A stretch of DNA of 64,000 nucleotides from Trissonchulus latispiculum. Its lineage: Eukaryota > Nematoda > Enoplea > Enoplida > Ironidae. Both the position numbers and the translations under genes were made by a program. The notes under the pieces are model-generated. The model was not told the DNA's origin. It was given only the letters and a program-made list of their open reading frames with translations, and ran no database searches. Location: the NCBI GenBank assembly GCA_030248195.1, contig JASAND010006875.1, positions 1 to 64,000 of the forward strand. Reading direction: 5' to 3'. Positions 1-43,500 of the stretch are shown one piece after another. How positions within the stretch are numbered: the stretch's first letter is position 1; the number at the start of each line of letters is the position of its first letter.

Positions 1-63
1 AAGCTGTGGTGTAGGGTTTTGGAGTTTAAGTCTCTCCGGGTAGCCGTGGGGAAGACGGCTACA
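1..63 (+). repeat. 3' end of the 5' LTR
   Basis: These bases match 12909-12971 at 60 of 63 positions and end in TACA, the expected CA terminus of an LTR. The rest of the 5' LTR lies before the window. The three differences (positions 31, 35 and 47) suggest some time since insertion, but 63 bases are too few for dating. Confidence 0.9.
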
Positions 64-82
64 TTTGGTGGCCAGTGTAGGG
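64..82 (+). other. Probable tRNA primer-binding region
   Basis: The sequence directly after the LTR end begins TTTGGTGGCCAGTGTAGGG. A TGG placed within two or three bases of the LTR end is the usual start of a site complementary to a tRNA CCA tail. I cannot assign the tRNA without a search. Confidence 0.5.
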
Positions 83-392
83 CCGTAATTGACAAAAGGG
101 GGAGACCTGGTGTTTAAAAAATTAAAAAGACGTCACTAGGGACTAAGTCGAGTAACAGTGATAGGACCTCGTCTGAGGATACAAGCGTAAATCCCACTAG
201 TAGCTCACCTGACGGATCTTACGTACGTAGCGATCGCACACTCAGTAGCTGCTTTTCCGAACTTGTTGAAGAGTATTTTGTCGAGGACCCTATAGTAGAG
301 TCGAGAGAAAGGGGTACAGTTGAGTCAGCGCCCCTATTATCCCTGCGTTGGGAATTTCAAGTAACCCTCCAAGAATAAAGCTTGACTTTAAT
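83..392 (+). other. Leader before gag
   Basis: This stretch of about 310 bases sits between the primer site and the first gag ATG. A different frame is open across roughly 165-378 and reads acidic, serine-rich residues, while the gag frame has no ATG before 393. It could be an untranslated leader, or the frameshifted N-terminus of Gag. Confidence 0.4.
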
Positions 393-2564
393 ATGCCCTC
401 CGATGAAAAGGTTGAGTTGGATTGCACTAAATGTGCGATTGACTTGAAGCAAATTCCTGTGTTTAAGGGTGAAATAGGCGATGATTTTAGGGATTTTTTA
501 AGAACGTTTGAGCGAATATCTGCCATTAATGATTGGCCAGAGGACAAGGCAAAGCTTTTGCCTGCTTTCTTGCGCGGATACGCAGCTGATGCATATGAAG
601 CGCTTCCGTCGGGAATTAGAACTAGCTGGGATCACGTTAAGGAAGCATTGGTACAAGTACTGGCCGACACGACGTCAAGTTCCGAGTTACATCGCCGTAC
701 TCAGAAAACGGGCGAGACAGTCGAGGAGTTTGCTCGAGCAATACAAACCTTAGTTAGGAAAGCCTACGGCAACACAATGAAGGGGAAATCACGGGACCGT
801 TTAATAAAAGAAATTTTTATGAACGGCCTCCGCAAAGGCATTCGGAGGTTGGTGCTTTCTAGCCGACCAACCTCATTTGAAGACGCAGTTATTAGAGCTA
901 AAGAACAAGAGACTTATGATGAGATGGATCAGGAAGATAAAGTAGTAAGATCAGTAAGATTCAGTGATTCTCCAACGAGAGAAGGGCTCGTGCGAAGGCC
1001 GTCGGAAGATTTGGTCGTAAAAAGCCTCATTGATTTAGTCAAGGAACAGCAAAAGCAGTACGAAGAGTTCGCTAATCAATTAGTTCACGCAATGCGCGAG
1101 ATGAATTCTAGAACTGACCATAGATTTAGACCACAGGATGGCAGATCTGAGTCTGCGTCATTTCGAAACATGTCTAGGCCGGAAATACCACGTTACAGAA
1201 ATGATCGAACCACTGATGGACGACCAATCTGTTTCCAATGCGGTAAGCCAGGGCATATACGCGCTCGTTGTATGGGCATAGATAGGTCGCCTCGCATTCC
1301 TAACCCTAGCCCTAGGCGGTTCCCTGTCACCAATACAAATGATGGTTTTAGACGTCCAGTGGTGGATCAAGGCAGTGTTCCGCAACCCCCACATACCTCT
1401 CACATGGAACAAAGGCACACGTCCAATTTTTGTGAGCAAATAACAGACAGCGAAACAGCAGTCGAGGAAGCGTCGGTGTCTGAACAGCCGGAAGTGGAAG
1501 CTTTGCGCGAGCAAAACAAGAGGCTTATTCAGAGGTTGCTATTGAGCAATAATGTGACTGGCCCTCAGACTAATGTCTTGACGCATAAACACGAGACAGG
1601 GATAGAGGAACTTATGGTGAATAGAGTTGTGTCAGATTTGGCTGTCGGGCAAATCCCTCTGGCACTAGGCTTAGTCTGCGGAAAGCCAGCGGAGATGTTG
1701 ATTGACACTGGCAGGACTGTCACGCTAGTCCGGCCTGGCTTGGTTGACTCACTTTTACAACCATGCAACGGAGTTACCGTCACTTCTCTTACAGGAAATA
1801 ATGTGAGTATCTTAGGAGGCTGTTATGCAGATTTGTTAATAGACGATAAGGCGGTAAATCTGTACGTGTATGTGGCGAAGGGCCTGCCCTATGATGCAAT
1901 TTTGGGAACCAACGCTGTGACCGCATTAGGAGGCTGGGTTGGAGTTTTGTCCAACCGCGTCGAAGTAGGTTTCGCAAGTAAGGAACTAGACGATGAAGCT
2001 GAGTCCGCTAACGTAAATGAAGACCCTTGTAAGGAACTACAGACGTCGTCATTTGGCTCTTACGTTACCCAGGTTTTCCTTGAATCTGACGTGGATATTC
2101 CACCTTGGAGCCAAATGACTTTAAAAACCATCGCCGACAACGCCCCGGTCGGAAGAATGGGATTGATTGAACCGACTGGTGCCCTACTTGAAAGGCAGGG
2201 ACTAGTAGGGGGTCCGGTAGTGGTGAATCTTACAGAAAATGGGATGCCCGTTCTAGTAGCGAACGCATCCGCTAACACTCGAAAGCTGTACAAAGGTACC
2301 ACTATCGGTCTGCTGACGTGTGTAGAATCCACAGAAGGGATGTGCTCCTGTGCAACCCAAGTGTTGGAAGAACCCGGCGGCACACGTTTCGATGAGCAGC
2401 TGAAGGAATTAGATTTGACCAAATCAGTATTGACAGCTCCGGAGAAGTATGAGCTTCAGAAGTTGCTTACATCTTACTCAGATATATTCTCGAAGGGAGA
2501 ATTTGATTTGGAAAACTGTAAGTTAGTAGAACACGATAAATACGGGAGATTCTGCACCTATTAG
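393..2564 (+). CDS. Gag and aspartic protease of the LTR element
   Basis: This is one uninterrupted frame of about 723 codons from the first ATG at 393; the frame is open slightly further upstream but has no ATG there. The first ~190 residues look like a Ty3/gypsy capsid, including a FVEEFARAI-like retrotransposon-gag segment and charged helices. A single zinc knuckle of the form CX2CX4HX4C begins at base 1230. A protease active site LIDTG is at base 1698, followed by the flap and ILGTN-like region expected of retropepsins. The last ~60 codons enter the linker before reverse transcriptase and then run into a stop after a frame change near 2540. The product would form virus-like particles and process the polyprotein. 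Gag and protease share one frame, as in many Ty3/gypsy elements. That 2.2 kb is intact while pol is broken is noteworthy. Confidence 0.88.
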   Translation: MPSDEKVELDCTKCAIDLKQIPVFKGEIGDDFRDFLRTFERISAINDWPEDKAKLLPAFLRGYAADAYEALPSGIRTSWDHVKEALVQVLADTTSSSELHRRTQKTGETVEEFARAIQTLVRKAYGNTMKGKSRDRLIKEIFMNGLRKGIRRLVLSSRPTSFEDAVIRAKEQETYDEMDQEDKVVRSVRFSDSPTREGLVRRPSEDLVVKSLIDLVKEQQKQYEEFANQLVHAMREMNSRTDHRFRPQDGRSESASFRNMSRPEIPRYRNDRTTDGRPICFQCGKPGHIRARCMGIDRSPRIPNPSPRRFPVTNTNDGFRRPVVDQGSVPQPPHTSHMEQRHTSNFCEQITDSETAVEEASVSEQPEVEALREQNKRLIQRLLLSNNVTGPQTNVLTHKHETGIEELMVNRVVSDLAVGQIPLALGLVCGKPAEMLIDTGRTVTLVRPGLVDSLLQPCNGVTVTSLTGNNVSILGGCYADLLIDDKAVNLYVYVAKGLPYDAILGTNAVTALGGWVGVLSNRVEVGFASKELDDEAESANVNEDPCKELQTSSFGSYVTQVFLESDVDIPPWSQMTLKTIADNAPVGRMGLIEPTGALLERQGLVGGPVVVNLTENGMPVLVANASANTRKLYKGTTIGLLTCVESTEGMCSCATQVLEEPGGTRFDEQLKELDLTKSVLTAPEKYELQKLLTSYSDIFSKGEFDLENCKLVEHDKYGRFCTY

Positions 2565-3854
2565 GCAGAAACCGTATCGGATACCTGAAGCGCAACGGGA
2601 GACAGTGCAAACGCAGTTGCGCCAGATGGAAGAGCAGGGGATCATTCGTATGAGCGCAAGTCCGTGGTTCAGTCCCATAATCTTGGTGAACAAAAAAATG
2701 GCGGGCTACGGATTTGTGTAGGTTTCCGCAAACTCAATGCGATAACGTTAGGAGACTACTATCCTATTCCTAGAGTAAACGAAACTCTGAATTATTTAGG
2801 AAAAGCGAAATATTTCTCAACTATGGACCTAGCCTCGGGGTATCATCAAATCAGGGTGGCTCCCAATGATATTCAGAAAACTGCGTTTTGCTCGAGCGTT
2901 GGGCTATACGAATATACGCGCATGCCATTTGGGCTCAAGAATGCGCCAAGTACATTTCAAAGGACCATGGAGTTACTGCTGGTAGGACTCCAGTATAAAA
3001 ATTGCCTAGTATATATCGATGACATTGTTGTTTACACCCCCGATTTTAAAACACATCTCCAGGCTCTCGAACAAGTGTTTGATAGGCTTCGCTATGGACA
3101 ATTGAAGCTGAAATTGAAGAAGTGTCATTTTGGACAAAAGGAGGTGTCCTTCTTGGGACACGTTATTTCAGCTTCGGGGATACAACCCGATCCCACTAAT
3201 GTAGCCAGTGTTCGCAATTTTGCAAAGCCCACGAAATCATCAGAAGTAAGAGGTTTTCTAGGCCTGGCTTCGTATTACAGAAGATTCATTAAGAACTTTG
3301 CATCTATAGCAAGACCGTTGCACAAATTAACAGCGAAGGAGGCAACGTTTCACTGGACAACCGAGTGTGATTGTGCCTTCTCTAACCTGAAACAGGCACT
3401 CATCATGTCGCCTATACTGTCATTTGAGTTAAAATTCTTACTGTCAACCGATGCTTCGGGCTATTGTTTGGGTGCTGTACTGGCACAAATGAACCGTGAT
3501 GGAATGGAAACTGTAATTGCGTATGCGTCCCGGTCACTCAATAAGGCTAAAATGAAGTACTCGACTATTGAGCGAGAAATGTTGGTTATAGTGTGGGCGT
3601 TGAAACATTTTCGCCCGTATTTGTACGGCCGCCGGTTCGTATTGTACACTGACCATTCACCGATACGATGGCTTAACTCTTTAAAGGATACGTCCTCTAG
3701 GCTAGGACGATGGCCGCTGGAAATTCAAGACTATGACTTCGAGCTGAAGCATAGGCCGTGCACGCAAAATAAGAATGCAGATGCACTGTTACTGTTACTC
3801 AGTCCTACAGTACAGAGGTTAGGGATGACGATATGGAACGACTGCCGACAGTGA
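2541..3854 (+). pseudogene. Reverse transcriptase and RNase H, frameshifted
   Basis: RNA-dependent DNA polymerase and RNase H of the element. The start of the RT domain (bases about 2541-2695) lies in one frame. The remainder, open from about 2664 to the stop at 3854, lies in another; the change falls near a run of seven A at about 2691. Landmarks are the fingers motif around 2700-2760, LASGYHQ-type residues near 2830, the catalytic YIDD at 3012, and the thumb and connection. RNase H carries a catalytic Asp in STDASG at about 3450 and a TDH motif near 3650. The usual NADALSR end reads NADALLLLL here. The C-terminal frame overlaps the integrase frame by 22 bases. The order and motifs are typical Ty3/gypsy; the frame breaks imply decay or assembly indels. 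Confidence 0.88.
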
Positions 3855-4609
3855 CAAAGAGAATAAGGTCATTGCAGGAGAGCGATCAATTAATACAAAC
3901 AATTCGTAACTATCTAGAGAAGCAAGAGTTGCCGGAAGAAGAAAGGCAAATTCGAAAATTAGTTTCGCAAAGTCCAAACTATTATGTCGAGGATGACATG
4001 TTGTGGCATGTATGGCATGACCATAGTGGTAAACGGCGGATTAAGGCGTGGCCTCAACTAGTGGTACCCGAGTCTCTTCGCAATGAGGTTCTAGAAATAT
4101 ATCATGACCAACTGGGACATTTTGGTATTGACAAGACTTTTGGTAGACTACGGCAGAATTTCTTCTGGCCGTCAATGTACTCGGACACCAGGAAGTGGTG
4201 CCGTAGCTGTGTAGATTGTGCTACGCGTAAAGGTCCACGAGTAAGGACGAAGGTTCCAATGAAGTCAATTGAAACTTCAGAACCTTTTGAAATCCTAAGT
4301 GTAGACTGTGTAGGACCGTTGCCGGAAACACAAAGAGGCAATAAACACATTGTCGTGTTTACCTGTTTATTTACAAAGTGGCCAGAGGCATTTGCAGTTC
4401 CCAACATACAGACGGATACTATAGCTGAAGTATTTGTCAATGAAATAGTGTGTCGACACTCGGCTCCGAAGGCGCTTCTTAGCGATAGAGGAGCTAACTT
4501 TTTATCAGACTTGGTGACCGGAATTTGCAAGTTGTTAAGAGTTAGAAAGCTCAACACGACAGGTTATCATCCACAAAACGACGGAGGGACGGAGGTTGCG
4601 AGAAAATGA
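3833..4609 (+). pseudogene. Integrase, HHCC and most of the catalytic core
   Basis: 258 codons from an ATG at 3833. An HHCC zinc-binding domain is visible: His at residues 91 and 96, Cys at 126 and 129. The DDE core has the first Asp at residue 158 (in SVDCVGP) and the second Asp at 218 (in LSDRG). The frame changes near 4590, just before the catalytic Glu helix, and ends in a stop at 4609. The Glu expected before the NRTL motif is in the frame of the next segment. As a protein this segment alone would lack a complete active site. Confidence 0.87.
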
Positions 4610-5070
4610 ATAGGACCTTAATTACTAGTTTATTAATGTACACCAGCACTCATCAGAAAGATTGGGATGTGTACATCCCTCTCGTTTTACTAGCATATAG
4701 AACTAGTATTCATGACTCTACGGATGAGACACCATTTTTCTTGGTGTATGGTAGAGACCATGTGCTGCCCGCAGAGGTGGATATGCATCTGGCTATAAGT
4801 GATCACCCGAAGGACTACCGGCACACTGTACTTGAGCGGTTGGAAGAAAGTAAACGTCTTGTCCAGCAGAACCTGGCGGACAGTAGGAGCAAGCAGAAAG
4901 AATACTATGACCGGGATGCAGCTGCCTGTAGTTTTGAGGTAGGCATTAAAGTATGGCTGCATGTGCCGGCAGTCGCAAAGGGCAAGAGTCCAAAGTTGTC
5001 GCATTTATGGCATGGTCCTTTCCGGATAGTAGAGAGGCCAACCCCAGAAACGGCTAGATTGCGACCATAA
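4606..5070 (+). pseudogene. Integrase C-terminal part with GPY/F module, frameshifted
   Basis: 154 codons from ATG 4606, overlapping the previous frame by four bases. The start continues the last helix of the integrase core (NRTL, then the gypsy-type LAYRTSIHDSTDETPF segment). Later comes the GPY/F module (LWHGPFRIVE, near residues 136-145). The frame hits a stop at 5070. The expected end of the module (VHVNRLK) follows at 5097 in a different frame, so one indel lies near 5050-5060. Confidence 0.85.
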
Positions 5071-5096: not shown

Positions 5097-5555
5097 GTGC
5101 ATGTTAATCGATTGAAACAGTGTATTAGTTGGGAATCTGAGGATACGGAAACGGCCAAAAATGTAGCGCGTGAAAATGAGAACACAGACTTGATTACACC
5201 TGCTAATTCAGACGCACCCGGCTCCCAAGCACCGGCTTTGGTGAACAACAGAGAGGAACCGAATATCGTATCTGCGCCACAAGTAGGTGACGTCGTGTGG
5301 GCTAAACTACGGGGATTTCCATATTGTCCTGCAAGAATCGCAGACAAGAAAGAGGTTGACATGCAACTGGTTAGCAAATGTTCCAGTAAATGGGTACTCG
5401 TGCAATTCTTTGGAAGTTGCGAGTTTGCTTATGTAGAGAAAGACTTGGGTCATGCGTATAGCAAGTTCCAACCCTATCGAGAAGGGCAAAGAAAGACTTC
5501 CACCTGCGGTGAGGCAAGCCTTGGCCGACCTCCGGACCGCAAAACCAGAAGTTAA
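5097..5555 (+). CDS. Integrase tail fused to a PWWP chromatin-reader domain
   Basis: The segment begins with VHVNRLK, the standard end of the gypsy integrase GPY/F module (GTG at 5097 is simply where the frame is entered). An acidic linker of about 50 residues follows, then a PWWP domain at residues about 62-130 (bases 5280-5486). The hallmark VGDVVWAKLRGFPYCPARI corresponds to GD-VWAK-G-PWWPA-V, with PWWP read as PYCP. The second block LVQFFGSCEFAYV corresponds to V-FFGT---AWV, followed by KFQPY. PWWP domains bind H3K36-methylated nucleosomes and DNA. Its place, directly after integrase, is where chromoviruses carry a chromodomain, so a role in integration-site choice is a reasonable inference. 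The helix that normally ends a PWWP domain appears to continue in the overlapping next frame from about 5490. Confidence 0.85.
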   Translation: MHVNRLKQCISWESEDTETAKNVARENENTDLITPANSDAPGSQAPALVNNREEPNIVSAPQVGDVVWAKLRGFPYCPARIADKKEVDMQLVSKCSSKWVLVQFFGSCEFAYVEKDLGHAYSKFQPYREGQRKTSTCGEASLGRPPDRKTRS

Positions 5556-7686
5556 CCTTTTAAGTATACACTTGGCCAATTATCATCCCGCGTATGTTTG
5601 GTTTCAGAATCAAGGACATTTGGAACTATCGTCCATGGCAGAAAATAACCAGCCTGATGAACGTAGGTGGCCAATTCGAACTGATGAAGGTATCCTATTG
5701 GCAAGCAGGCCACCCCCGGCTCACTGCAACGAGTTGATGTCTGCAGAAGTAGGCGAGAACGAAATACTAACTTTCCATCATGAAACGTCGAGTAACAAAT
5801 TTGATGGTGCATATCTCTCTGGTAACCTCTATCGCCACCTGTGCTCAGTAGCAACAAGGCTTGAAATATGGGAGAAAGGCCAGCAAGCCGTTTATGATTG
5901 CTATCTTCCAAAAGGTGTGCGAGTAGTATTAGCCATGACTGAAACGGTAAAAAGCTTACGCCTCCTGTTGTATCCCCTTCTTTTTGGCGATTTACACGAC
6001 TATACTAGAGATCGTAAACATTTAGCCGAAGAAACATTAAAATGGTACTTTAAGCAGATGATGGAGGCTGTAGTGTTTGCACACGATAGGGATGTGAGCC
6101 TTCGAGGAATAAAACTGAAGGGATGGGTGTTTGCTACACCGGACAAATTGATAATTCGAATCGGTGATATAAGTAGTCTTTTCGTGTGTCCTCACGGAAA
6201 TGACTGGTTGGAGGAACGGCATGGAAGCCCAGCTTATGTCAGCCCTCAACTTCTTACCTTGGAAATTCCACGATTTGGTGGTAAAGCCAACGACATGTGG
6301 ATGTTTGGCATTTTATTGTATGTAGGGGCATTTGGAAGATATCCTTTCTATGATCCAACACCGGCGGGTTTGTTTTTATGCATACGTAGAGGCATATACA
6401 TTATGCCTGCGTCACCAAAAACGTCTATATTTTTGAAGGGCACTATAATAGGACTGTTGAGAGCACGAGCCTGCGAACGGCCTACAGCGAGTCAGGTTTT
6501 GCAAAGTGAATGGCTAGCAGAAGTAGACCGACCTAATCAACACTGTAACATAGAAGAGCTTGGAAGGCAACCAGTACCAATACCAGATGAACCGGGTCCT
6601 CTACAGGGCAACCCGGCAACCCCAAGTTATACGGTCCATCCTGCTTACACAGACTGGCGCACAGACCTGTTCACAGATGTCCGACATTATTTCTTACATC
6701 TATTGTTAGTCTTGTGGCTGCTGTTTGCCGTGGGTTTAGCTAGTCAACTGCCGAAGCGTCGGGCACAGCAATACGGTGCGGAGACAGAGCTCACTGTTCC
6801 AGTCTTTTTGGAAAACGGTACGTTAAACGAAAGAGTGGTGTTAAATCTCGAACATGGCGTTGTGCTTAGAAAGGTAGGCGTTTTAGATGGTTCTAGTGAG
6901 ACGCTAGCTCATTATTTTGTGATACCACTTGATTTGAACGTTACAAGACCCCCGTCCATGCCCTCGTGTCAGCAAGTCAGCGAAAAAGCTAAGGCCACTA
7001 ACCACACCTTCTTTGTTTCCTTAGCAGATAATTTGTGCGGACTCGCCCGCGAACTAAACTCTAGTTTATTTAGAACGTATGATAAAATGCAACAGGCAGA
7101 GGCCGCAATCTTTATTGATGTGCAAAACCTAGCTAACGGGACCGCTGGAAAACGCCATGTTAGGAATATAATTAGAGGATTCGTCTACCTTTTAGAATCC
7201 ATATTTGGCGGATGTGACCCGGGGGATGCAGAGGCTGTTCGACGAGGACTTAGTGTTATCGAAGCGCGTACAGATTCCTTAGCTACCGCAGTTGTGCATA
7301 CTCAGAACAAATTAATTTTGGTGGCAAAGATAATTAAAGACGAGAGAAGACAGACAAACGGGCAGTTTAGCCTGCTTTCGCATGGGCTAAGCGAAGTCTC
7401 GAGAATGCAAGCACGTCTAACAGATAGTACTAATAAGATAACCGTAGCACTGCAGCTTTTTGCTCTGTTGTCTGGCTTACAAACACGTTTGACTTTTGAC
7501 GTTGTTAAATGGGTAGTGGTTACTTGGCACGATGAGTTGGCTGCTGCTCACCGGTTAGTTGCTGCTGTCTCTGAAATAAGTCATGGGTATCTCCCAGCAG
7601 AAGTAATATCGCCGAGAATTTTGCGCGAGGTGTTGCAACATACACAAGAGGAATTAAAAACGAAAGCTCGTAGAGTATGGAGTTGA
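5452..7686 (+). CDS. Tribbles-like pseudokinase fused to the N-terminal part of an F-type Env
   Basis: One open frame of 744 codons. Residues 1-30 (GKERLPPAVRQAL) look like the PWWP C-terminal helix, so translation may enter from the previous frame. An ATG at 5635 (TCCATGG) could also start it. Residues about 120-355 match the Tribbles pseudokinase fold: GDLHDYTR (179), LRGIKL (217) in place of HRDLKPEN, no DFG, GSPAYVSPQ (258), GGKANDMWMFGILLY, GRYPFYD (295), LFLCIRRGIY (308) and ERPTASQVLQSEWL (342). A proline-rich linker leads to a hydrophobic segment at 411-430, probably the Env signal or anchor. Residues 431-744 carry N-glycosylation sites, an RxxR cleavage site at 568-571, a following hydrophobic fusion-peptide-like stretch ending near FGG, and a long helical region, as in gypsy Env and baculovirus F. 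The Env reading frame is lost at 7686. Confidence 0.85.
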   Translation: MRIASSNPIEKGKERLPPAVRQALADLRTAKPEVNLLSIHLANYHPAYVWFQNQGHLELSSMAENNQPDERRWPIRTDEGILLASRPPPAHCNELMSAEVGENEILTFHHETSSNKFDGAYLSGNLYRHLCSVATRLEIWEKGQQAVYDCYLPKGVRVVLAMTETVKSLRLLLYPLLFGDLHDYTRDRKHLAEETLKWYFKQMMEAVVFAHDRDVSLRGIKLKGWVFATPDKLIIRIGDISSLFVCPHGNDWLEERHGSPAYVSPQLLTLEIPRFGGKANDMWMFGILLYVGAFGRYPFYDPTPAGLFLCIRRGIYIMPASPKTSIFLKGTIIGLLRARACERPTASQVLQSEWLAEVDRPNQHCNIEELGRQPVPIPDEPGPLQGNPATPSYTVHPAYTDWRTDLFTDVRHYFLHLLLVLWLLFAVGLASQLPKRRAQQYGAETELTVPVFLENGTLNERVVLNLEHGVVLRKVGVLDGSSETLAHYFVIPLDLNVTRPPSMPSCQQVSEKAKATNHTFFVSLADNLCGLARELNSSLFRTYDKMQQAEAAIFIDVQNLANGTAGKRHVRNIIRGFVYLLESIFGGCDPGDAEAVRRGLSVIEARTDSLATAVVHTQNKLILVAKIIKDERRQTNGQFSLLSHGLSEVSRMQARLTDSTNKITVALQLFALLSGLQTRLTFDVVKWVVVTWHDELAAAHRLVAAVSEISHGYLPAEVISPRILREVLQHTQEELKTKARRVWS

Positions 7687-7974: not shown

Positions 7975-8772
7975 ATGGTGAAAGGCATTGGGCATAATTG
8001 TTTAAGCGCCATTTTTGGCCGTGCAGGCCGAGAAATTGTTCGGAAGCAATGTCATATACAGTTGAGTTCCGTTAAAGATGGGCGGGCGTTGGTAAATCTT
8101 GCGGCAGAACATGGGGTATGGTTTGTTGGCTTGGTTGATACCTCTTGGACATTATTTTGCGATCCGTCCCCACCCATAGTAGTGAGTACATGCTCCCATT
8201 GTACTATTAAGATACCATGCGGATGCGGACTAACCTTAGGAAATTATACCATTTCACCGCTGATCTTCAATTGTAGGCAGCCAAGCCACCGCTTGCTAAA
8301 GACGCAAGTGCACTCCAATCTCCTACCTTATGTGTATCCGCACCTGGCACACCGACACCACAGTATAAATTTTCGCTCCTCCGGTGATCTACGTATTAGC
8401 AAAGTTGTCATTAATGAATCATATAGAGAATCTTTACCTCCGGAAAGTTATCGTTCACCGGAACTAGAGGAAGCAGCAGTTCTTGATAGGGATGCATTCC
8501 TACATCGAGAACAAGTTTATCAACAATATAAGGCAGCCCAGTCGATTTATTGGAGTTCTCAGGTGTGGTGGAATTATGCGCTGTTAGCAGGAGAGCTATT
8601 GCTCTTGGTTTTAGTTCTAGCGTTAGCTCTGAGGGAACAGGTACAGTACAGACTAATGGATCTGAAAAACTATTTTTCGAATTGCAATGAGAAACGAGCG
8701 GCTCTAGAAGATACCAACAGCCCGACTAGTGTGAATGATGAAGGAGGTAGCGGCACGTTGGAGAAGGCCTGA
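7975..8772 (+). pseudogene. C-terminal part of env with transmembrane anchor
   Basis: 265 codons; the frame is open from about 7918 and the first ATG is at 7975. It contains a cysteine cluster (CSHCTIKIPCGCG, bases about 8193-8230), as seen before the stem of insect retrovirus Env proteins. A helical stem follows, then a strong membrane segment near residues 200-220 (YALLAGELLLLVLVLALAL) and a cytoplasmic tail of about 45 residues. Without the upstream frames it could not make a working glycoprotein. Confidence 0.82.
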
Positions 8773-9133: not shown

Positions 9134-9898
9134 GTGCGGACGACGAACTCGGCAAGTGAGGTCTTGAAGACCTGGGACCAATTCTGCCAAGCGGACAAAA
9201 AATGGAAAGATGCACGAAGGCAACTAACAGTGCTTAAACGCCAAGTAGATGATAATTACCAAGTGAGAGGGGTAGCTCTGAGAACATACTTGACTTTACG
9301 AACAGGTAAACCGAAGCGGCCACGGGCGCAGTCAGTACAAGTGACTATAGCGGAGTGTCCCCGAAGAAAGAGCGGCGCTGGCTCTGAAACGACCCAGGAA
9401 GACCAGGAAGTGGCTCGAGGGAGAAGCGAAAGTACCCCAGTTGAAAGAATAAAAGCTTTAGCATCGGCTACCAGAGCGGATGTTTCGGCGGATACGTCGA
9501 CACGAAATGTGTCGGAGCCATCAGTTCTGGTTAATTCATCCGCATCAAAATCGTCAGGATCAGAACAAGGTGGACTATTGGGTCGTGGAGTGGGGAGAGT
9601 AAAGCGTGCTCGAATTGTATCAGGGTCTTCATTGACCGGAAGATTTAAAAACAATCCACGCAGGCAAGCAGGTGGTAATGGGGAGCAGGTAGACATTCGT
9701 CAACCTCCAGCACAGCAAAATAAACTTGATTATGAAGAGCCACTGGCGCGACCTATTGAAGTACGGGCTTGGAATGCTGGGTCCGAACGATTCCCGAAGT
9801 TACCCTCTCATTTGAGGCAACGCGTCCTAGAAGATGCTCGCTATTTTAAACACTGGCATCAGGGGATGTCAGCAGGTCAGGGGGGCATTTGCCCATAA
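9134..9898 (+). CDS. Accessory ORF 1 of the retroelement, unknown function
   Basis: A 254-codon frame in the sense orientation inside the LTR element, not recognised. It opens with a charged helical region (WKDARRQL...), then a basic, Ser/Thr/Gly-rich middle resembling a nucleic-acid-binding or disordered tail (RVKRARIVSG, GRFKNNPRRQAGG). The frame has no usable ATG near its start (GTG at 9134). A candidate 3' splice site lies just upstream, so expression from a spliced mRNA is likely. A coding-like frame continues to a TAG at about 10039 after a frame change near a run of six G at 9880, suggesting the original protein had about 300 residues. Confidence 0.55.
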   Translation: MRTTNSASEVLKTWDQFCQADKKWKDARRQLTVLKRQVDDNYQVRGVALRTYLTLRTGKPKRPRAQSVQVTIAECPRRKSGAGSETTQEDQEVARGRSESTPVERIKALASATRADVSADTSTRNVSEPSVLVNSSASKSSGSEQGGLLGRGVGRVKRARIVSGSSLTGRFKNNPRRQAGGNGEQVDIRQPPAQQNKLDYEEPLARPIEVRAWNAGSERFPKLPSHLRQRVLEDARYFKHWHQGMSAGQGGICP

Positions 9899-10374: not shown

Positions 10375-10833
10375 ATGGACTCCAGGCACCCGTTATTTAT
10401 CTATGATACCCGTATAAAAAGTTATCCCCGACATTTACGTCGTCTGGCTGGGTGTACAACCGCAATTCAATGGATGGAGACTTTTAATTCCTTTGGAAAT
10501 TCGTACAGGGTTATTCAACTGCACGGAGTTAACCACATGTATGAGTTGATGGGTGGAGTAATGGGGTCACCCATGATTGCAGAACACCCGCGTAACTTAA
10601 TTCTTACGCTCCTATTTTGGACCAGCTGGCATGGGTATGATGAGACTACTCAGCACCGGTTGTATGTGGCCCTGATCGCCAAGACAGTGGGCATCAAGTA
10701 CCCTCCTAATTGGCGATTACCTCTCAGGGGAGCGGCGTGTTTCGAACCAGCAATAGGGATTGTTACCAGGCGGTCGCTCAGAGACTTCGGGGGTCGTCTA
10801 GCTGCCCAGCGGAGACGGGCCCGCTCGATATAG
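10375..10833 (+). CDS. Accessory ORF 2, second part
   Basis: 152 codons in frame with, and directly after, the preceding TGA. Rich in aromatic and hydrophobic residues, with a very basic end (RLAAQRRRARSI) resembling a nuclear or RNA-binding tail. No domain is recognised. Either a nonsense mutation split an ORF of about 218 codons, or the TGA is read through or is the boundary of two small proteins. Confidence 0.5.
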   Translation: MDSRHPLFIYDTRIKSYPRHLRRLAGCTTAIQWMETFNSFGNSYRVIQLHGVNHMYELMGGVMGSPMIAEHPRNLILTLLFWTSWHGYDETTQHRLYVALIAKTVGIKYPPNWRLPLRGAACFEPAIGIVTRRSLRDFGGRLAAQRRRARSI

Positions 10834-11531
10834 ATTTCATAGCAGGTCCTATGCGGTTCTCTCATCAACTCAAAATTTTGGTTCATTAGTTTGGTACTTT
10901 CTTTACTTAATACTTTCTAATTCTTTCTCGAACTGAGTGTCTCCGTTTTTTGTTTAGGTTTATGAAGCGTCTCAAATTTTGACTACGCTTAACATGGAGC
11001 AAGCTTGCGGTAATAGAAACGCAAGTTACCTTAAACTCAGAAACTCTTACTTAGCTCTTAACAGGTTTTTGTTTTGTCTTGTTTTATCAAAAAACGTTGG
11101 TCTTCTTTTTCACCAAGCTGGAGGATAGCCAGCAATAGCAAAAGCATAGTCATAGCAAAATTTTTCTTCTCTTAAGTTCTGACTTAGGTAGTCGCACTGA
11201 GTTCACCAGGTGCTGACTAATTTCTAACTCAATTGTTGTTACGAGGTGTGAGTTAGATTTTGTTGAAAAGTTTAGTTAATGTGGTTCTGCTAGTCTAGTC
11301 CTAAGAGCGAGCCTTCGCAGACTTAATAGAAAGTGTAAAATTCTGAGCTCCTTAAACCTAAAACGATGAATTTTCAGTTTTCGATGGAACATGAACAAAC
11401 TAAGTCGAAAACCCATTGCGTTAGGTAGGTACACAAAATGTACTGCCAAAGGTCGTTGGTTAAAATACACCACCGTTACTTGACTATTGCTAAGCAGCAG
11501 TGTTTTCGCACAGTTCGAACCTAAATACAAA
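10834..11531 (+). other. Non-coding stretch inside the retroelement
   Basis: About 700 bases, T-rich in part, without a convincing ORF on either strand. It separates two accessory ORFs and could hold splice sites. I see no further structure. Confidence 0.4.
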
Positions 11532-12290
11532 ATGCATTATTTATGGTTATATTTTATTTTCGTTGTTTTAGTTCATGAGCCCTCTTCTAACGTGGGGCAG
11601 CCGCCCTCCACTCCTGCTCCGCAAACGGCCCCGTCTTCGGTATTCTGTCCCCGTGATTATATGCGGGGATACTTAGATGGGTTAAACGCTGTTTTAGTTT
11701 GGGTTTCTACGTCGATTACACACGTTGCTTCTCTCGTGACCTCAGCTCCAGGACCGCTGTGTGCTTCGGGGACGACCACCGAAGGCCCTGGACCCGCTGT
11801 GGGGCCCTGGTCCTCCAGTGGGCACGGCGAAGGAGGGGACGTTCCCCCGGCTCAAGGCTATGAAGGGGCCCTACCACCTTTCAGCCCAGTGTCACTATCT
11901 TCGCCGTATACGTCACTGCAGGGTCGCCGTCTAAATCGTCTGAGTCGTCGGAGTCGCTTCCCGTACCCGATGGAGGAGCGGAAGAAATGCCCTGTGCCGG
12001 GATGTAACAGCCTAGGTAGTCGTTTCGGTGGTTTTCATCATAAGGTGTGGAATTCCTGTCCCCTGCTCAAATCAGTAGTGCGCGGAGCTGGTGGTGATTG
12101 GGTGATCGAAACACTGACGGCGGAGAGTTTGGGTATTGGCACGGGTTTACCGCCAAACCTTGCTAGATTTTTCCCATCGGCGTCCACGTCTACTGGGAAA
12201 GAAGGGCAATCGCCCCCAGGAGATACTACGCCCGGGTCGTCGGTGGATCCAGCTCAAATGCCTGGGGATTCTCCCGGGGATACGGAGTAG
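11532..12290 (+). CDS. Accessory ORF 3: signal or anchor segment and a Cys/His finger-like motif
   Basis: 252 codons from ATG 11532. The N-terminus has a hydrophobic run (YLWLYFIFVVLV) like a signal peptide or membrane anchor. A Pro/Ser/Gly-rich region and a basic patch (RRLNRLSRRSRFPYP) follow. Residues near 157-185 read CPVPGC, then a spaced His and Cys ending in CPLLK. This resembles the MYT1-type C2HC finger (CPxPGC...H-X5-C), but one residue shorter and lacking one of the usual His positions. The tail is Ser/Pro/Gly-rich. No match to a named retroviral gene is known to me. Confidence 0.5.
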   Translation: MHYLWLYFIFVVLVHEPSSNVGQPPSTPAPQTAPSSVFCPRDYMRGYLDGLNAVLVWVSTSITHVASLVTSAPGPLCASGTTTEGPGPAVGPWSSSGHGEGGDVPPAQGYEGALPPFSPVSLSSPYTSLQGRRLNRLSRRSRFPYPMEERKKCPVPGCNSLGSRFGGFHHKVWNSCPLLKSVVRGAGGDWVIETLTAESLGIGTGLPPNLARFFPSASTSTGKEGQSPPGDTTPGSSVDPAQMPGDSPGDTE

Positions 12291-12624: not shown

Positions 12625-12971
12625 TGTAACCAAGTGGTGGGTAGGTGACTAGTTAAAAATCTTTAAGATAGTAGACCGTAGAAGGGTAAGATTTTGATAA
12701 ACAACAAAATGAATGCGTCAATGGTTGCGTCGACGCAAGAGGCAATTGACTATAAAAGGGGAAGTCTCTAAGTCGGGGGGGGGGGCTCGACTACTTTGTC
12801 ACGATTAGTTTTCGTCTTGGCCTGACTGGTTATGATTGGAGCAGTATTCGTGACTCCCTAGTGTGTTTCGGTGAGTGTGGATGCTTATATTAACAGTAAA
12901 GTAGAGAAAAGCTGTGGTGTAGGGTTTTGGAGTTTAAGACTCCCCGGGTAGCCGAGGGGAAGACGGCTACA
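12625..12971 (+). repeat. Complete 3' LTR, 347 bp
   Basis: It starts TGTAACC after the polypurine tract and ends GGCTACA; these ends are near-perfect short inverted repeats (TGTAACC versus TGTAGCC). The last 63 bases match the window start. The bases just after it (CTATT) are a candidate target duplication that cannot be tested, because the left flank is outside the window. Confidence 0.88.
12750..12760 (+). promoter_or_regulatory. TATA box in the 3' LTR
   Basis: CTATAAAAGGG lies about 125 bases into the LTR. It is the likely core promoter in the 5' copy and is followed by a G-run and a pyrimidine-rich stretch. Inferred from motif and position. Confidence 0.5.
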
Positions 12972-25500: not shown

Positions 25501-28500
25501 ACAACGAGGCTCATATTGGCGTCACAGTGCAGCCTCGTTAAAGATCATCAGATCATCATATTAAAGAAAAAACGAATGAATAGACATAACATGTTAACAT
25601 TGTGGCCTGAAAGAAATGGACTGAACGAAGTGAACTGCGACACCTTAAGTTGAACTGTACATGCAAGCTGATGTTTCCCGAAACACCAAAGCACCTACTA
25701 GTTCCTGGAAGCACCATAGTACACCTACTGTATTCTCGGAACACTATGTTTTTTTTTTGAACACTAATCTCACATACGTAATGCTTTCCCCACTTGGCTC
25801 TGAGTCAGAGTGGCATGCCGTATAATGCGTATGCACAGTATAATGTCTTAGCGACAAGATGTGTGAAGGACAATTTTGTAATGAAAAGCTTTACGTGCTA
25901 TTTATATGAAGGTCAAATATCGACAAATTATATTATGACATGCGCCGATATGAGCCTCGTTGTAGGACAGGCTCATTTGTTAAGCCGTTGCAACTTTTTT
26001 CCTTAATTTACAACCTCAACGCCACTCATATGCACTTTACATGCTAGTTTCCGTGTTTGTACAACCTGCCTGAGAGTACTCATATGTATTTTACATGCGA
26101 CGAAGGAGCATTTTTGGTTCTTGTAAATATACCTATTTTTTCAGCGAAAGATTGGCAATTTTAAGATAAAAATGCAAAACGGTGTTCTTTAGTTTAAAAT
26201 GGGCTTGCAAGTCCAAAAATTAGTTAAAAATTGATAAAATTTTTGAAGTCGAAAACCTAATTTTTCCGACTTTTTGGGTAGCCGACAAAAAACTGAGGGT
26301 CCTGCCCTCTAAAAGATGTCCTAATCTAGCCGTTTTAGATGTTTAACCGGCCGGGTCGAAAGTGTATAGTCAAGCTGGAAAAAACCCACTCGCCAATGCG
26401 GGAAAAAACCCACCCCCAGTGTGGGCTTACCGGTATGAGCTATGTAGGATTTTAATAGCCTATCTTGAAGAGCATCCAAAATAACCCTGGAGGGTGCATT
26501 ATTGTCGCTCCCCCTGCTTCCCAGCAAATTTTTTTGGGACTTTGAAATTTTCGAAAATTTTCGTCCGTCCAAGTACCGAAATTTGGCAAACTTTGCCTGG
26601 CCACCCTGAACTACTGGAAAGACTTAGACCAAAGCGGATTGTACGTATGTGTAGGGCATCTGTTGCGCATCATGATGATATATGCCGGACTTCGGATTGA
26701 AAGGTCCGAGGTTCGATTCCCGCCTTAGCCATAATGACGTTACATTGTTTCCTTGAGCAAGAAACTTAGGACACTGCTCCGCCGGTCGGATGAGGCATTA
26801 AATTGGTGGGCCCGTGCGCTGCCTTGCTGGGGGTAGTGCACGCTAAAGAACCCTTAATCCACTTATCGTCAAGAGTAGGGCGCGGAGTTCCCGGTGGAAG
26901 GTACCCCCTTGGGATATACCAGCACTTCTGCAATGTGGTCCGCCTACCTCCTGCGAGGGAGTGTTGGGTGCAAACGAGTCATGTACTCAAAATGGATCAC
27001 ACAACTTTCCGGGTTTGTCTCTGATCCCACCCCATCTGTGCTTGGGGCTTGGAGTGTCGGAAGATGCTGTGCACCTCTACCTTGCGTATGAGCAGTTAAT
27101 GGATGTCTTACTACCGGAGCCGAAAGGCCAAGAAGGTGTCTGCTCCAGCTTCCCATTGTGGGACAGCATTCAGGCGACGAAGCGAGAGTCATACTAGCTA
27201 TGACTGATGGGGAGAGACAAAGGTTACCGCCCTCATATAGCCTCTTGGCTGAGTAGCCCGGCAAGAACAACAACAACAATGATATATGCCACACTGCTCT
27301 AACCCCTCCGGTGCGACCTGGAGGTGACCTAGAGTTGGCGGGAAAAAACCCACATGCGGGAAAAAAAACACTTTTCAAAATTGAAAATTTTTCTAAGCAT
27401 TAGCAGGAAAGGTCAAACGAATACATACATTTGTTTAATAGAGCCTATAGATTAAATTGGTATGGGTTTTACCGGGGTTCGATCTGTTATGGGAGGTCCA
27501 GGGTGTCATAATCGGACATGGTACCATTTCAAGCCAAAATTTCAATTTGGCCAAAAATGCTTATTTTTGCCTTAAAATGGGTTTAGTTTGGCTCTAAATA
27601 CAAGAAAAACACGTTTTCTATACGATAGAATGCTTAAACTGCCGAAAATAAACTATTTTTAAAAGTTTCCAAAATTTGCCCATGTTTATGTGTTAAACAT
27701 ACCAAATTTTCAAAAGTCACTATGACCTCAATTTTTCAACAAAAACTAATATATTTTAATGCAGTTGTACTAAAAACAACCCGCTCTTTCATTTATAACG
27801 GTTAGAAATGCTCCTGGCAACTTGCCAAAAAATTTCGGGGTGGGTTTTTTCCCGCATATGGGTTTTTTCCCGCCAATTTGGGACAATGTTTCTCACTAAC
27901 GGCGCACCTTAGAGAGGTGTTCTATAGCTCATAAGAAAGCTTACGACTAGGCCTAGCAGCCTGTATAGTCAGTATTTCAATATCTCAAACCAGTAAAAAG
28001 TTCTGGCCAAAAATCTGAAAAGTGGATTTTCCCCCGCTTGACTATATTCCAGTGTACGACTTGGAAACAGGGTTTTTACTGGGACTACGTATTTTGTTTT
28101 CTTGTTTTCTTTGCAAAAAATCATTTTGCGAAGCTCAGACAGAGAGATTTGGTTAGATTTACTTATCATTATGTTATCACATCACCATCTACTATGTTTT
28201 AGACAGTATGAAGAGCAGATAGTACCAGAGACGGCGTGGCGCCCATGGCTAATTTATGTGTATTCTGATTGGTGTCATGTCTGTAAACGATTTGAGCCTG
28301 TATGGGAAAAGCTCACCAGAGATCTGGCACCTTTGAGTAAGCTAAGACTTTGTCGGTTGTTTGTTGTTCCAGCTTTTGCGTTTTCACCTTCGCTTTAATA
28401 TTTTTTCCTGTGATCAGTGGGGGAGGCTGAACAATGGAGGTCAAGTAAAGATGGATGGAAGGAAAGTAAAGAGATGGTTGTTTTCGGGAAGGCTCTAAAG

Positions 28501-40595: not shown

Positions 40596-43500
40596 CTAAA
40601 ATGATGAAGAAAAAACAAGAATACCTACTCAGGTAAAGTTCTTACATTTCCTCTGTGTACAATCTGCACTACTTGCGCTGAAGATACCTGAGAAATAGGA
40701 ATAAATTTGATAAATATCTTCCAAATCTATTATTTAGCATAACTTAGAATCGGGAAAAGGAAAAATGCACCTAATTTGAGAATGCAATATTTTGAATTTT
40801 GGCCTTTGGTAACAACTTCCTTTTGTCTAAACGCAAAAATCTATCAAAGAAGTAGTGTTGTGCAGTACAACTGTATCCTAGACGCCTTTACGCGAGGAGA
40901 GAGAGTTTGTTTCGGAGGCAGTTGGGAAAGCGTCCTTGTGAGGGATTCCACATGAATCTATGGTTGATCACTTTCTTGTACACTCTACTGACTGTGGAAG
41001 TCTATTTGACGTAGGATACTTATGCAACAATATGTCATACCCTTATTCTTTATGGCCACTTTCATGACAGTGTAAAATTTCGTGAATATGTTGACAGGCG
41101 TTGCCGTTGCCGTTCGTTTGTTCATTTGCCGAATCAGTTTTGCTCGACCAAATTTCCATTCAGTATCCGACTGGGCCTGAATTCGTTGGTAGGTGTCAGA
41201 CATCATAGCGATCAGCAGGTTGATTAACACAATCAGGGTGACCATCATATAGACTCCGAACACGATTTTCAGAATAGCTATGGAAAATTCGGGGGTTCGA
41301 TGAAGCGGGGGCATTTGATCCGGTTCCACCAAACCGAATAGGGAAAAGAAGAGCATTTCCAGGGTTTCGATCGGGGAGGCCAGTCGGGCTTCGCTGGGAT
41401 CGTCGACAGCGAAGGCCGGCTGAAAGATTGAGGTAACGTGGAGCGTGAATCCGGCCACAAATAAGGCAAGGATGACCAAGAATCTAATTAGGTCATACAT
41501 CAGATCTCGAATAATGATGGCCCAGGGACCGAACAGGTGATGAACTGTCAGAAATTCTAAAATATCCACAAAACAGAACAACAAAACGACGGCAAACAGT
41601 TGATTCTTTATGTATAAAATAGTCTGTTGTTCTCGTAGGTAGTCGGGCGGATTGCTGATTTTGGGATAGATGAAGGCTGTAATGTGAACGATCACAGCAA
41701 TGGCACTGAATATCAAAATTGCGATTTTCAAAATTCCCAATCCGGAACGGGAATCCGGATTACTAAGTTCGGAAACCAGCAAACCGGAAAGCCAGAGCAA
41801 GAGTAGCCATTCCACCCAAGTAGGCACCCAACTGTCTACCTCATAGATGGGTTTGTTCAGTGATAGCACCTCAATGATAAGCAATGATGTAAAGTAGCCG
41901 TGGGAGATTAGGTGACAGATAAATTTGATGATGGGTGATTTGCATATTTTCACCTCCAGTGGTAGGGAAAAGACCACCCACAGCGGTGGAAAAACAGTTA
42001 AGACCACAAAAAATATGAAAAATTTCCAGTCGCCCCAGTCAATTCCACCGTTCCAGATTTCGGTAAGATAGCGCTGTACTGTGGCGTGGGACACAACCTT
42101 TTTCTGTTCATGTTCAATTAGTACGTCCAGAAACGGTCTATTTCGATTATCAATCGATTTTAGCAGAAGGGCGGCATTGTAGTCAGTGGAAGCTATGGAT
42201 AGCAATTCTACAGCCATGTCTTCGCAGTATTCAGAAACGATGGCTAAATCCTTTGCTCTCTCCTTTTCTTTGGTCGACATTTCTCGATATAAACTGGACA
42301 GTTTAACGGCGATATCGATGGGAGCGGGCGATAGTAGGACGTATTCCTCCACTGGCTTATAGTGATTGCTTTTACCGCAAACCATTAGGTCGAAGACAAA
42401 CTGAAACATACAAATACATTTACAAAATGAAAGTTAGGTTAAACTAAAAGATAAAGCTAGAGTATTTCCACGGCACTATGAAAATGAAATATTACACAAA
42501 CGTATTTCAATCACGTCTTGGTCTTATTAATATATTAATCGATACTTGTAAATTAGCTATATCATTTTTTGTTTGGCTACAAATAAGGACATTTATCTAG
42601 AAAGCTACGGAAGAGAAAGAAGAATCTCTATCTGATGTCTGCAAGCAATTAAAGTATCATTCAATCTGACAAGGAATTTTTAGTCCGACGTGAAAGTTTT
42701 GAACTCTTGAACCTTTCTATCTTCCATTAGAGCATAGGAATCGTGTTCATGATGCATTAGAAAGGACAAGACTGGATAGTGATTGGCCGCCGCTGCAAAG
42801 GTTATGGCAACTTTTCCTTCTTTCGTTTCGGCCAAAGGATCAGCACCTGATTCTAGCAGTAGTTTGACCACTGCCATGTGACCTGCTTTTGTGGCAAAGT
42901 GTAAAGCTGTCCAACCATTCTATAACAAAGGAATAATAGCCGACGTTTACTGTCTCCAATATTTTTGTTTAATTTTTGAATTGTCATTACAGTACCTACA
43001 ACCCGAAAATTTCGGGCCTGAGGTAGGGATCAAGCCACAACCTTGGCTCTATCAATTGAGCCAAGCAGGCAAAATCGAACAAAGCTTAAGTTTGAATTAG
43101 TTTCCAAACTGTATTGATTGACATTTTAAAGTGTATATGCTTTTGCGTCCTAAAATTGAGTCAAAGTCTTGCCTGAGTAGCAAGACGACACCAAATTACG
43201 AATAATTTTTGTTTTTCGGAGGGTTACAACCGAGGTTAAGGTTAAACTACAATTAAGGCTAAAAGAACTGGTCAAGCTCTGACGTACTCCATCCATGGCG
43301 TTGATGTTGGATCCTTGACCCAGGAGAAGTGAGACCATGTCATAGTGACCATTCATGGCGGCCAGATGGAGACTGGTTCGACCCTTGGAGTCCTTCAGGT
43401 GGAGCTGGTGAGTGGATCTGCTCAGAAGGAGACCCACCACGGCCACGTGGCCGCACTGCGATGCCAGATGGAGTGGAATGACGGACTAAAAACAGACAGA

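What the first reader, a model, noticed from the sequence alone, without database searches (positions are those of the whole stretch)
5635..6530. A Tribbles-type pseudokinase carried by an LTR retroelement
Seen: residues about 120-355 of the 744-codon frame contain, in order, GDLHDYTR, LRGIKL, GSPAYVSPQ, GRYPFYD, LFLCIRRG and ERPTASQVLQ. Known: Tribbles proteins (TRIB1-3, Drosophila trbl) carry these blocks (GDMHSYVR, LRDLKLRKFVF, GCPAYVSPE, GRYPFHD, LFxKIRRG) and act as scaffolds for the COP1 ubiquitin ligase and MEK/AKT signalling. Inference: an ancestral host Tribbles mRNA was captured and kept as an intact frame, much as vertebrate oncoretroviruses took kinases. The loss of HRD and DFG points to a scaffold or decoy, not an enzyme. 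I know of no retroelement described with a Tribbles domain.
Basis: partly seen in the sequence, partly recalled or inferred. Interest (0 to 1): 0.95.

Follow-up and report, generated by a model that had tools for sequence, protein, structure and literature searches.

The report
Retroelement envelope carries a Tribbles pseudokinase
A virus-like jumping element in what is probably an animal genome carries an unbroken copy of a host-type signalling protein, Tribbles, next to its envelope protein, and other mobile elements in the same genome carry related copies, which suggests that Tribbles is a repeated target of conflict between mobile DNA and its host.

Summary
Frame 5452-7686 holds a kinase-like domain matching TRIB1/TRIB2 (2e-36; next family 8e-16), without HRD Asp or DFG. 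It sits in a Ty3/errantivirus-like provirus (LTRs 1-63, 12625-12971): Gag-Pro-RT-RH-IN, PWWP, Tribbles, membrane anchor, Env. The unnamed 734-Mb host assembly has 131 matches on 115 contigs. The 11 class A copies put in a tree form one clade (98/97); Tribbles dN/dS is 0.13-0.16 in three diverged pairs. A TTTYAG splice-acceptor-like site lies 12-27 nt before a conserved Met in 12 of 13 copies, so Tribbles is probably the cytosolic N-terminal leader of a spliced Env. A PWWP sister element lacks it. A second Ty3 lineage has a Tribbles-like domain between duplicated proteases (A+B as one RT clade rejected, p-AU 0.0004); a third has two pseudokinase ORFs beside an exonuclease-NADAR ORF. Polinton-like elements carry Tribbles genes, some with an intron that class A lacks. 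Function (host-directed scaffold or decoy) is inferred. My paper searches showed no retroelement with Tribbles.

The parts
1..63 (+). 3' end of the 5' LTR (the contig begins inside it)
   Evidence: 95% identical to 12909-12971
66..83 (+). probable primer-binding site (TGGTGGCCAGTG...)
   Evidence: sequence just after the LTR; rule recalled, not tested against a tRNA
348..2564 (+). Gag-protease frame (CCHC knuckle, aspartyl protease)
   Evidence: sub-threshold Pfam matches; same order in L018, where Retrotrans_gag is above its cut-off
2664..3854 (+). reverse transcriptase and RNase H
   Evidence: RVT_1 2.7e-30, RT_RNaseH 1.4e-36
3833..5070 (+). integrase, in two separate frames
   Evidence: Integrase_H2C2 1.2e-23, rve 3e-8
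5286..5474 (+). PWWP domain after integrase (frame 5097-5555)
   Evidence: PF00855 1.5e-13
5602..5607 (+). predicted 3' splice site TTTCAG, 27 nt before the Met
   Evidence: TTTYAG at the like place in 12 of 13 class A copies; function inferred
5635..6594 (+). Tribbles-type pseudokinase domain with its N-terminal part; Pfam kinase match 5938-6516
6679..6756 (+). hydrophobic segment, probable signal anchor of Env
   Evidence: hydropathy 2.18 at residues 410-435 of the frame
6757..7686 (+). Env-like N-terminal part, with furin-like RHVR at residue 568 of the frame
   Evidence: aligned with L010; resemblance to L014 and L018 by eye; motif
7975..8772 (+). Env-like C-terminal part, in a separate frame (Env is broken in this copy)
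   Evidence: 61% to L010, 26% to L014 and to L039
9134..9898 (+). accessory ORF, class A
   Evidence: weak homologues in L014 (6e-8) and L016 (1e-9)
10375..10833 (+). accessory ORF, class A
   Evidence: 43% to L014 (9e-42) and 44% to L016 (3e-38)
11487..12290 (+). accessory ORF
   Evidence: 38% over 66 aa to L014, 8e-11
12625..12971 (+). 3' LTR, 347 bp, TGTAAC...GCTACA
   Evidence: both ends recovered in L009, there with an insertion inside

Best explanation
A Ty3/errantivirus-like retroelement lineage took up a spliced host-type Tribbles RNA, between its integrase-PWWP end and the signal anchor of Env, and has kept it. Shown: domain identity, position, one clade among the copies compared, purifying selection in diverged pairs, absence from a PWWP sister element. 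Supported but not shown: a spliced mRNA gives a Tribbles-anchor-Env protein, so that Tribbles lies on the cytosolic side as an extended Env leader, possibly released by signal peptidase. Inferred: it works as a non-catalytic scaffold or decoy that engages host partners of Tribbles (kinase pathways, turnover of transcription factors, innate or germline signalling) to favour expression or spread of the element.
For: TRIB1/2 best hits by sequence and by fold (weak model). The 11 class A copies in the tree are one clade, 98/97, and group with the genome's intron-bearing and Polinton-linked Tribbles, 97/95, apart from nematode and vertebrate Tribbles when the long-branch rows are left out. dN/dS of the Tribbles part is 0.130 (bootstrap 0.084-0.191), 0.154 (0.065-0.334) and 0.163 (0.104-0.228) in three pairs; other parts of the same pairs give 0.035-0.190. 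One frame carries Gag, protease, RT, RNase H, integrase, PWWP and kinase in L018. TTTYAG lies 12-27 nt before the Met in 12 of 13 copies, against 86 of 2296 ATGs with TTTYAG at -45 to -4 in the same loci; in L021 the pol frame ends in that very TAG, so the site is kept although the codon is a stop. A hydrophobic anchor follows the domain in the window, L010 and L014. Spliced env is the rule in insect relatives (PMC12992720, passages). GT-AG intron in L026-L028, none in class A.
Against: No RNA or protein data; the splice donor was not sought. Copies share ancestry, so 12 of 13 is not 12 independent events; L016 lacks a clear site; L037 and L038 (class B) and L039 (no Tribbles) show no TTTYAG in the 130 bases before their Env signal segment. 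Pol and Tribbles-Env are one open frame in several copies, so a Pol fusion is possible. The two pairs of near-identical copies give weaker ratios, 0.354 (window-C21729) and 0.283 (C15858-C9752), on very few changes. No COP1 tail motif was seen and HPWF is lost in class A, so known Tribbles mechanisms are not assured. No Pfam family matched the Env-like frames scanned. In the 36-row tree the Tribbles group against STK40 has only 77/92 and A+D as one clade is neither shown nor rejected (p-AU 0.113).
Confidence: 0.62

Rival explanations
1. The domain serves the particle, not a host pathway: as cytosolic leader of Env it controls Env trafficking, Gag-Env contact or release, with the pseudokinase as a protein-binding module.
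For: In the class A copies read it lies directly before the signal anchor; the catalytic loop varies between copies.
Against: Other classes carry a Tribbles-like domain away from Env: class B in Gag-Pro, class C as separate ORFs, Polinton-like elements as separate genes; a shared host target explains this better.
Confidence: 0.2
2. The domain is the C-terminal part of Pol: integrase-PWWP-Tribbles, used in the nucleus for tethering or integration.
For: PWWP and Tribbles are in one open frame in C21729, C663, C6450, C263 and C9752.
Against: Splice-acceptor-like site plus Met before Tribbles; in L021 a stop separates PWWP from Tribbles and in L016 the frames differ; a PWWP element without Tribbles exists (L039).
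Confidence: 0.13
3. A passenger or chimaera without function.
For: The window's own copy is broken in pol and env.
Against: Open frames and dN/dS of 0.13-0.16 in three pairs with dS 0.10-0.69; further element classes with such domains.
Confidence: 0.02

Closest known systems
Tribbles pseudokinases (TRIB1-3, trbl, NIPI-3)
   Same: Best sequence and fold match; PAYVSP, GRYPF and IRRG blocks; no DFG
   Different: Inside a provirus, before Env; catalytic-loop Asp and HPWF lost in the window; no COP1 tail motif seen in four class A tails
Errantiviruses / insect endogenous retroviruses with env-F
   Same: LTRs, Gag-Pol order, Env-like part with anchor and furin-like site; env of the relatives is made from a spliced mRNA (PMC12992720, passages)
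   Different: PWWP after integrase, Tribbles before the Env anchor, three further ORFs
Retroviruses and ERVs with captured host genes: src in RSV, cyclin homologues in a walleye virus, KIT-ligand and nectin3 in crocodile ERVs (PMC4299795, abstract and passages)
   Same: Captured host coding sequence under purifying selection
   Different: Here a pseudokinase before Env, at two sites in related Ty3 lineages, and in other element classes
Gypsy elements with chromodomain, Tudor or NADAR (Ectocarpus, PMC12477816, passages)
   Same: Chromatin reader at the integrase end; NADAR in a Gypsy element
   Different: The word PWWP does not occur in that main text; NADAR here lies in a separate ORF with an exonuclease-like part, beside pseudokinase ORFs
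Polintons/Mavericks
   Same: Type B DNA polymerase next to Tribbles genes
   Different: Tribbles cargo; capsid genes and termini were not examined here

Membership tests
Tribbles | Kinase-like domain closer to TRIB than to other kinases | tested here: met
   TRIB1 2e-36 against SNF1 7.7e-16
Tribbles | Clade with TRIB apart from STK40 and other kinases | tested here: inconclusive
   77/92 with 36 rows
Tribbles | DFG motif lost | tested here: met
   0 of 22 element or genome copies aligned keep DFG
Tribbles | COP1-binding C-tail motif (acidic...VP[DE], recalled) | tested here: not met
   Read by eye in 4 class A tails, window, L010, L014 and L018: no VP followed by an acid
Tribbles | HPWF motif at the end of the domain | tested here: not met
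   0 of 10 class A copies with these columns (an 11th ends before them); 5 of 5 class D keep it
Ty3/errantivirus-like element | LTRs and PR-RT-RH-IN order | tested here: met
Ty3/errantivirus-like element | F-type Env | tested here: inconclusive
   No Pfam match in the frames scanned; furin-like site and hydrophobic segments; resemblance to F recalled
Ty3/errantivirus-like element | Env from a spliced subgenomic mRNA | tested here: inconclusive
   Acceptor-like site in 12 of 13 copies; no RNA data, donor not sought
Polinton (class D context) | Type B DNA polymerase | tested here: met
   L043 1.6e-36; in L025 the partial ORF matches only below the cut-off, 4e-4
Polinton (class D context) | Capsid, ATPase, integrase, terminal inverted repeats | not tested
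   The stretches fetched were too short

The most novel reading that the evidence does not exclude
In one animal lineage, unrelated mobile elements (Ty3 endogenous retroviruses at two sites, a further Ty3 family, Polinton-like DNA elements) have each armed themselves with Tribbles-type pseudokinases, with traffic of the module between them; in the window's lineage it is delivered as a releasable cytosolic leader of Env. Tribbles would then be a general hub of conflict between mobile elements and their host.
Probability: 0.45. Interest if true: 0.95.

Novelty: new variant of a known kind. Interest (0 to 1): 0.88.

Why it matters
Captured host genes in retroviruses are rare and usually cost the virus part of its own genes (PMC4299795, passages). 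Here a lineage keeps its genes, adds a pseudokinase before Env, and shares the trick with other element classes. This points to a host pathway under recurrent attack, and gives natural, diverged, DFG-less Tribbles variants that can show which surfaces of Tribbles matter. It also shows PWWP as an integrase-end chromatin reader in many Ty3 elements of this genome.

Tried and rejected
Rejected: another kinase family for the window's domain; a one-off chimaera. For class C1 (370 aa) the best PDB hit is MARK4 1.4e-14 with TRIB2 at 7.4e-13, so it is only called Tribbles-like; for L038, TRIB2 1e-23 hardly beats CaMKII 9e-22.

Led nowhere: scans of viral contigs with the Tribbles domain, RT and the Tribbles alignment A1 confirmed no relative. 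PHROGs gave one chance-level match. The AF2 model is weak. The host species was not identified; COX1-like pieces with internal TGA and TAA codons lie in a nuclear-size contig. Paper searches: 19 (10 papers, all listed), 20 (78, 20 listed), 58 (3, all listed), 59 (138, 30 listed; none has pseudokinase with the other two terms), 76 (62, 15 listed), 77 (29, 12 listed), 88 (920, 12 listed), 89 (9, all listed). In the listings I saw no Tribbles-bearing retroelement, no PWWP-bearing Ty3 element and no pseudokinase in Polintons. I saw listings only, except passages of PMC12477816, PMC4299795 (with its abstract) and PMC12992720.

Full report
1. The observation. The frame 5452-7686 (+) has 744 codons. 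Pfam finds a protein kinase domain at residues 163-355 (3.5e-15). Against the PDB the domain matches TRIB1 (2e-36) and TRIB2 (1.4e-32), well ahead of SNF1 (7.7e-16) and STK40 (2.1e-15). Foldseek with a weak AF2 model (mean pLDDT 51; best C-lobe blocks 74-82) also ranks TRIB2 and TRIB1 first. The catalytic loop reads LRGIKL and the DFG site IGDISS. DFG is absent in 22 of 22 element or genome copies aligned; the catalytic-loop Asp is absent in 5 of 11 class A copies (the window among them) and present in 6.

2. The element. 63 bases at the window's start repeat at 12909-12971 at 95%. The 3' LTR is 12625-12971 (347 bp, TGTAAC...GCTACA); L009, whose Tribbles part is 98% identical, holds both ends of the same LTR, with an insertion inside. 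Between the LTRs lie Gag-protease, RT, RNase H and integrase, then PWWP (1.5e-13), the Tribbles domain, a hydrophobic anchor (residues 410-435), an Env-like part with a furin-like site, and three further ORFs. In this copy pol and env are broken; the Tribbles frame is not. The contig starts inside the 5' LTR, so a target-site duplication could not be checked.

3. Copies (class A: PWWP-Tribbles-Env order). The host assembly G000 has 734 Mb, is unnamed and probably an animal. The Tribbles domain has 131 matches on 115 contigs; only 124 of 314 candidates were scored, so counts are lower bounds, and the weakest matches (identity 23-30%) may be other kinases. PWWP has 78 matches on 75 contigs, some of which may be host genes. 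22 contigs have both: 20 in class A order by position, 13 of them read, and 2 of class B; 53 PWWP contigs have no Tribbles match. Open frames of 2,888-2,934 codons exist in C6450, C263 and C9752; the 2,414 codons of C263 held in L018 carry Gag, protease, RT, RNase H, integrase, PWWP and kinase in one frame. Of 13 class A copies read I put 11 in the protein tree (L011 and L012, broken in the domain, left out): one clade, 98/97. dN/dS of the Tribbles part is 0.130 (window-C663, dS 0.69), 0.154 (C263-C9752, dS 0.10) and 0.163 (C262-C15464, dS 0.48), with bootstrap upper limits of 0.191, 0.334 and 0.228; other parts of the same pairs give 0.035-0.190. Two near-identical pairs give 0.354 and 0.283 on very few changes; for most other pairs dS was saturated.

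4. Exchange between copies. C6450 and C263 are 97% identical in RT, but in the Tribbles part dN is 0.32 and dS is saturated; for C262-C15464 dS is 0.11 in integrase and 0.48 in Tribbles. So the PWWP-Tribbles-Env part and pol do not share one history: recombination between element lineages is likely (inferred).

5. How it is probably expressed. In 12 of 13 class A copies read, TTTCAG (TTTTAG in L021) lies 12-27 nt before an ATG that opens the Tribbles part; L016 has the Met but no clear site (read from the DNA printed). In the same loci 86 of 2296 ATGs have TTTYAG at -45 to -4. The copies are related, so this is not a count of independent events, but in L021 the pol frame ends in that TAG and the site is kept, which speaks for the RNA, not the codon. 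In L016 and L021 Tribbles-Env is closed off from PWWP by frame or stop. Against it: L037, L038 and L039 show no TTTYAG in the 130 bases before their Env signal segment. In insect relatives env is translated from a spliced mRNA (PMC12992720, passages). The inference is a Tribbles-anchor-Env protein with Tribbles on the cytosolic side. The splice donor was not sought.

6. Origin. L039 (C19787) has RT-integrase-PWWP-anchor-Env in one frame with no Tribbles domain. In the RT tree 11 class A copies (C20533 in, C262 out, against the protein tree) are one clade (100/99), with PWWP elements C19787 and C14294 next (83/82), then C17979; no Tribbles match was found on these three contigs (capped), and for C14294 and C17979 only the stretch from RT to PWWP was read. 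Class B elements (C11995, C3918) lie apart as a pair (87/88, long branches); joining A and B in one RT clade is rejected, p-AU 0.00038. In the Tribbles tree itself A+B is not rejected (p-AU 0.116). In class B the Tribbles-like domain lies between two aspartyl protease copies, before RT.

7. Other element classes. Class C: 31 matches have frames of 364-374 codons and identity of 31% or less (C14645, with such a frame, is class A by position); 3 were read. There, after a Ty3 Pol frame, come a 370-aa pseudokinase ORF, an ORF with a sub-threshold 3'-5' exonuclease match (1.5e-4) and NADAR (2.4e-37), and, read in full in L023, a second 362-aa pseudokinase ORF. The 362-aa domain is TRIB1-like (2.1e-22), the 370-aa one ambiguous (MARK4 1.4e-14, TRIB2 7.4e-13). 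dN/dS among the three 370-aa copies is 0.04-0.17. Class D: L025 has two tandem Tribbles ORFs (the first: TRIB2 3.4e-54, STK40 4.1e-25), a NADAR ORF (1.4e-33) and a partial ORF with a sub-threshold match to type B DNA polymerase (4e-4). L043 has a polymerase ORF of 1,048 aa (1.6e-36), two 221-aa ORFs and a Tribbles gene split by an intron. Four listed polymerase contigs (C18094, C5416, C7619, C11368) have Tribbles about 3 kb away on the same strand; in C18076 the two lie 36 kb apart (capped). L026 holds polymerase pieces like L043's by eye. L027 and L028 show no polymerase-like ORF in the stretch read and may be host genes. L026, L027 and L028 share a GT-AG intron at one site; class A and L025 have none there.

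8. Relationship of the Tribbles domains. Without the long-branch rows (classes B and C, tick and outgroup kinases), A and D form one clade apart from nematode and vertebrate Tribbles, 97/95; in the full tree A+D is neither shown nor rejected (p-AU 0.113) and A+D with vertebrate Tribbles, nematodes out, is disfavoured (0.025). All element classes together form a weak group (76/95). So the source of the class A domain is most likely the Tribbles family of the same host lineage, perhaps by way of a Polinton-like element. Repeated capture is the simplest reading of different positions in different elements; sharing of one captured module is not excluded.

9. Function. That it is kept under selection is shown; what it does is inferred. 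Known Tribbles bind COP1, MEK and C/EBP factors, and the nematode one acts in immunity (recalled). The COP1 tail motif was not seen in four class A tails and HPWF is lost in 10 of 10, so a decoy or altered scaffold is more likely than a plain copy of the host's role. That unrelated elements carry the same kind of domain in different places favours a host target over a role in the particle.

10. Novelty. Host-gene capture by retroviruses is known (PMC4299795, abstract and passages), as are chromatin readers and NADAR in Gypsy elements (PMC12477816, passages). A Tribbles-Env fusion, PWWP at the Ty3 integrase end, and Tribbles in Polinton-like elements were not in the listings of searches, several of which show only part of the papers found. 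The library lacks most subscription journals and holds no bioRxiv collection.

Noticed in passing
G000, e.g. L025:6308-6910 (-), L023:1811-3937 (-): NADAR domains are greatly amplified in this genome (150 listed of 2478 first-look candidates) and occur in a Ty3 class and in a Polinton-like element.
   Followed up: partly
G000: Type B DNA polymerase frames, many of about 1,400 codons (158 matches; 77 of 935 candidates scored): a heavy Polinton-like load.
   Followed up: partly
L037:1-3999, L038:3-5603: Aspartyl protease is present on both sides of the pseudokinase in the two class B elements.
   Followed up: partly
L013/L014 against L018; L015 against L020: Pol and Tribbles parts of class A elements have unequal divergence, a sign of recombination between element lineages.
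   Followed up: partly
window 9134-9898, 10375-10833, 11487-12290: Three ORFs after Env have homologues in class A relatives; the first two match no Pfam family above its cut-off, the third was not scanned.
   Followed up: partly
G000: PWWP lies in frames of about 2,250-2,560 codons on many contigs without a Tribbles match; the four read (L039, L047-L049) are Ty3 elements with PWWP after integrase (Pfam for L039 only).
   Followed up: partly
window 40988-43485 (-) and 28042-28395 (+): Host gene pieces: ion-channel domain, ankyrin repeats, and a thioredoxin domain.
   Followed up: partly
L043:3175-4547: Two tandem 221-aa ORFs of unknown function between DNA polymerase and Tribbles in a Polinton-like element; similar ORFs in L026.
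   Followed up: no
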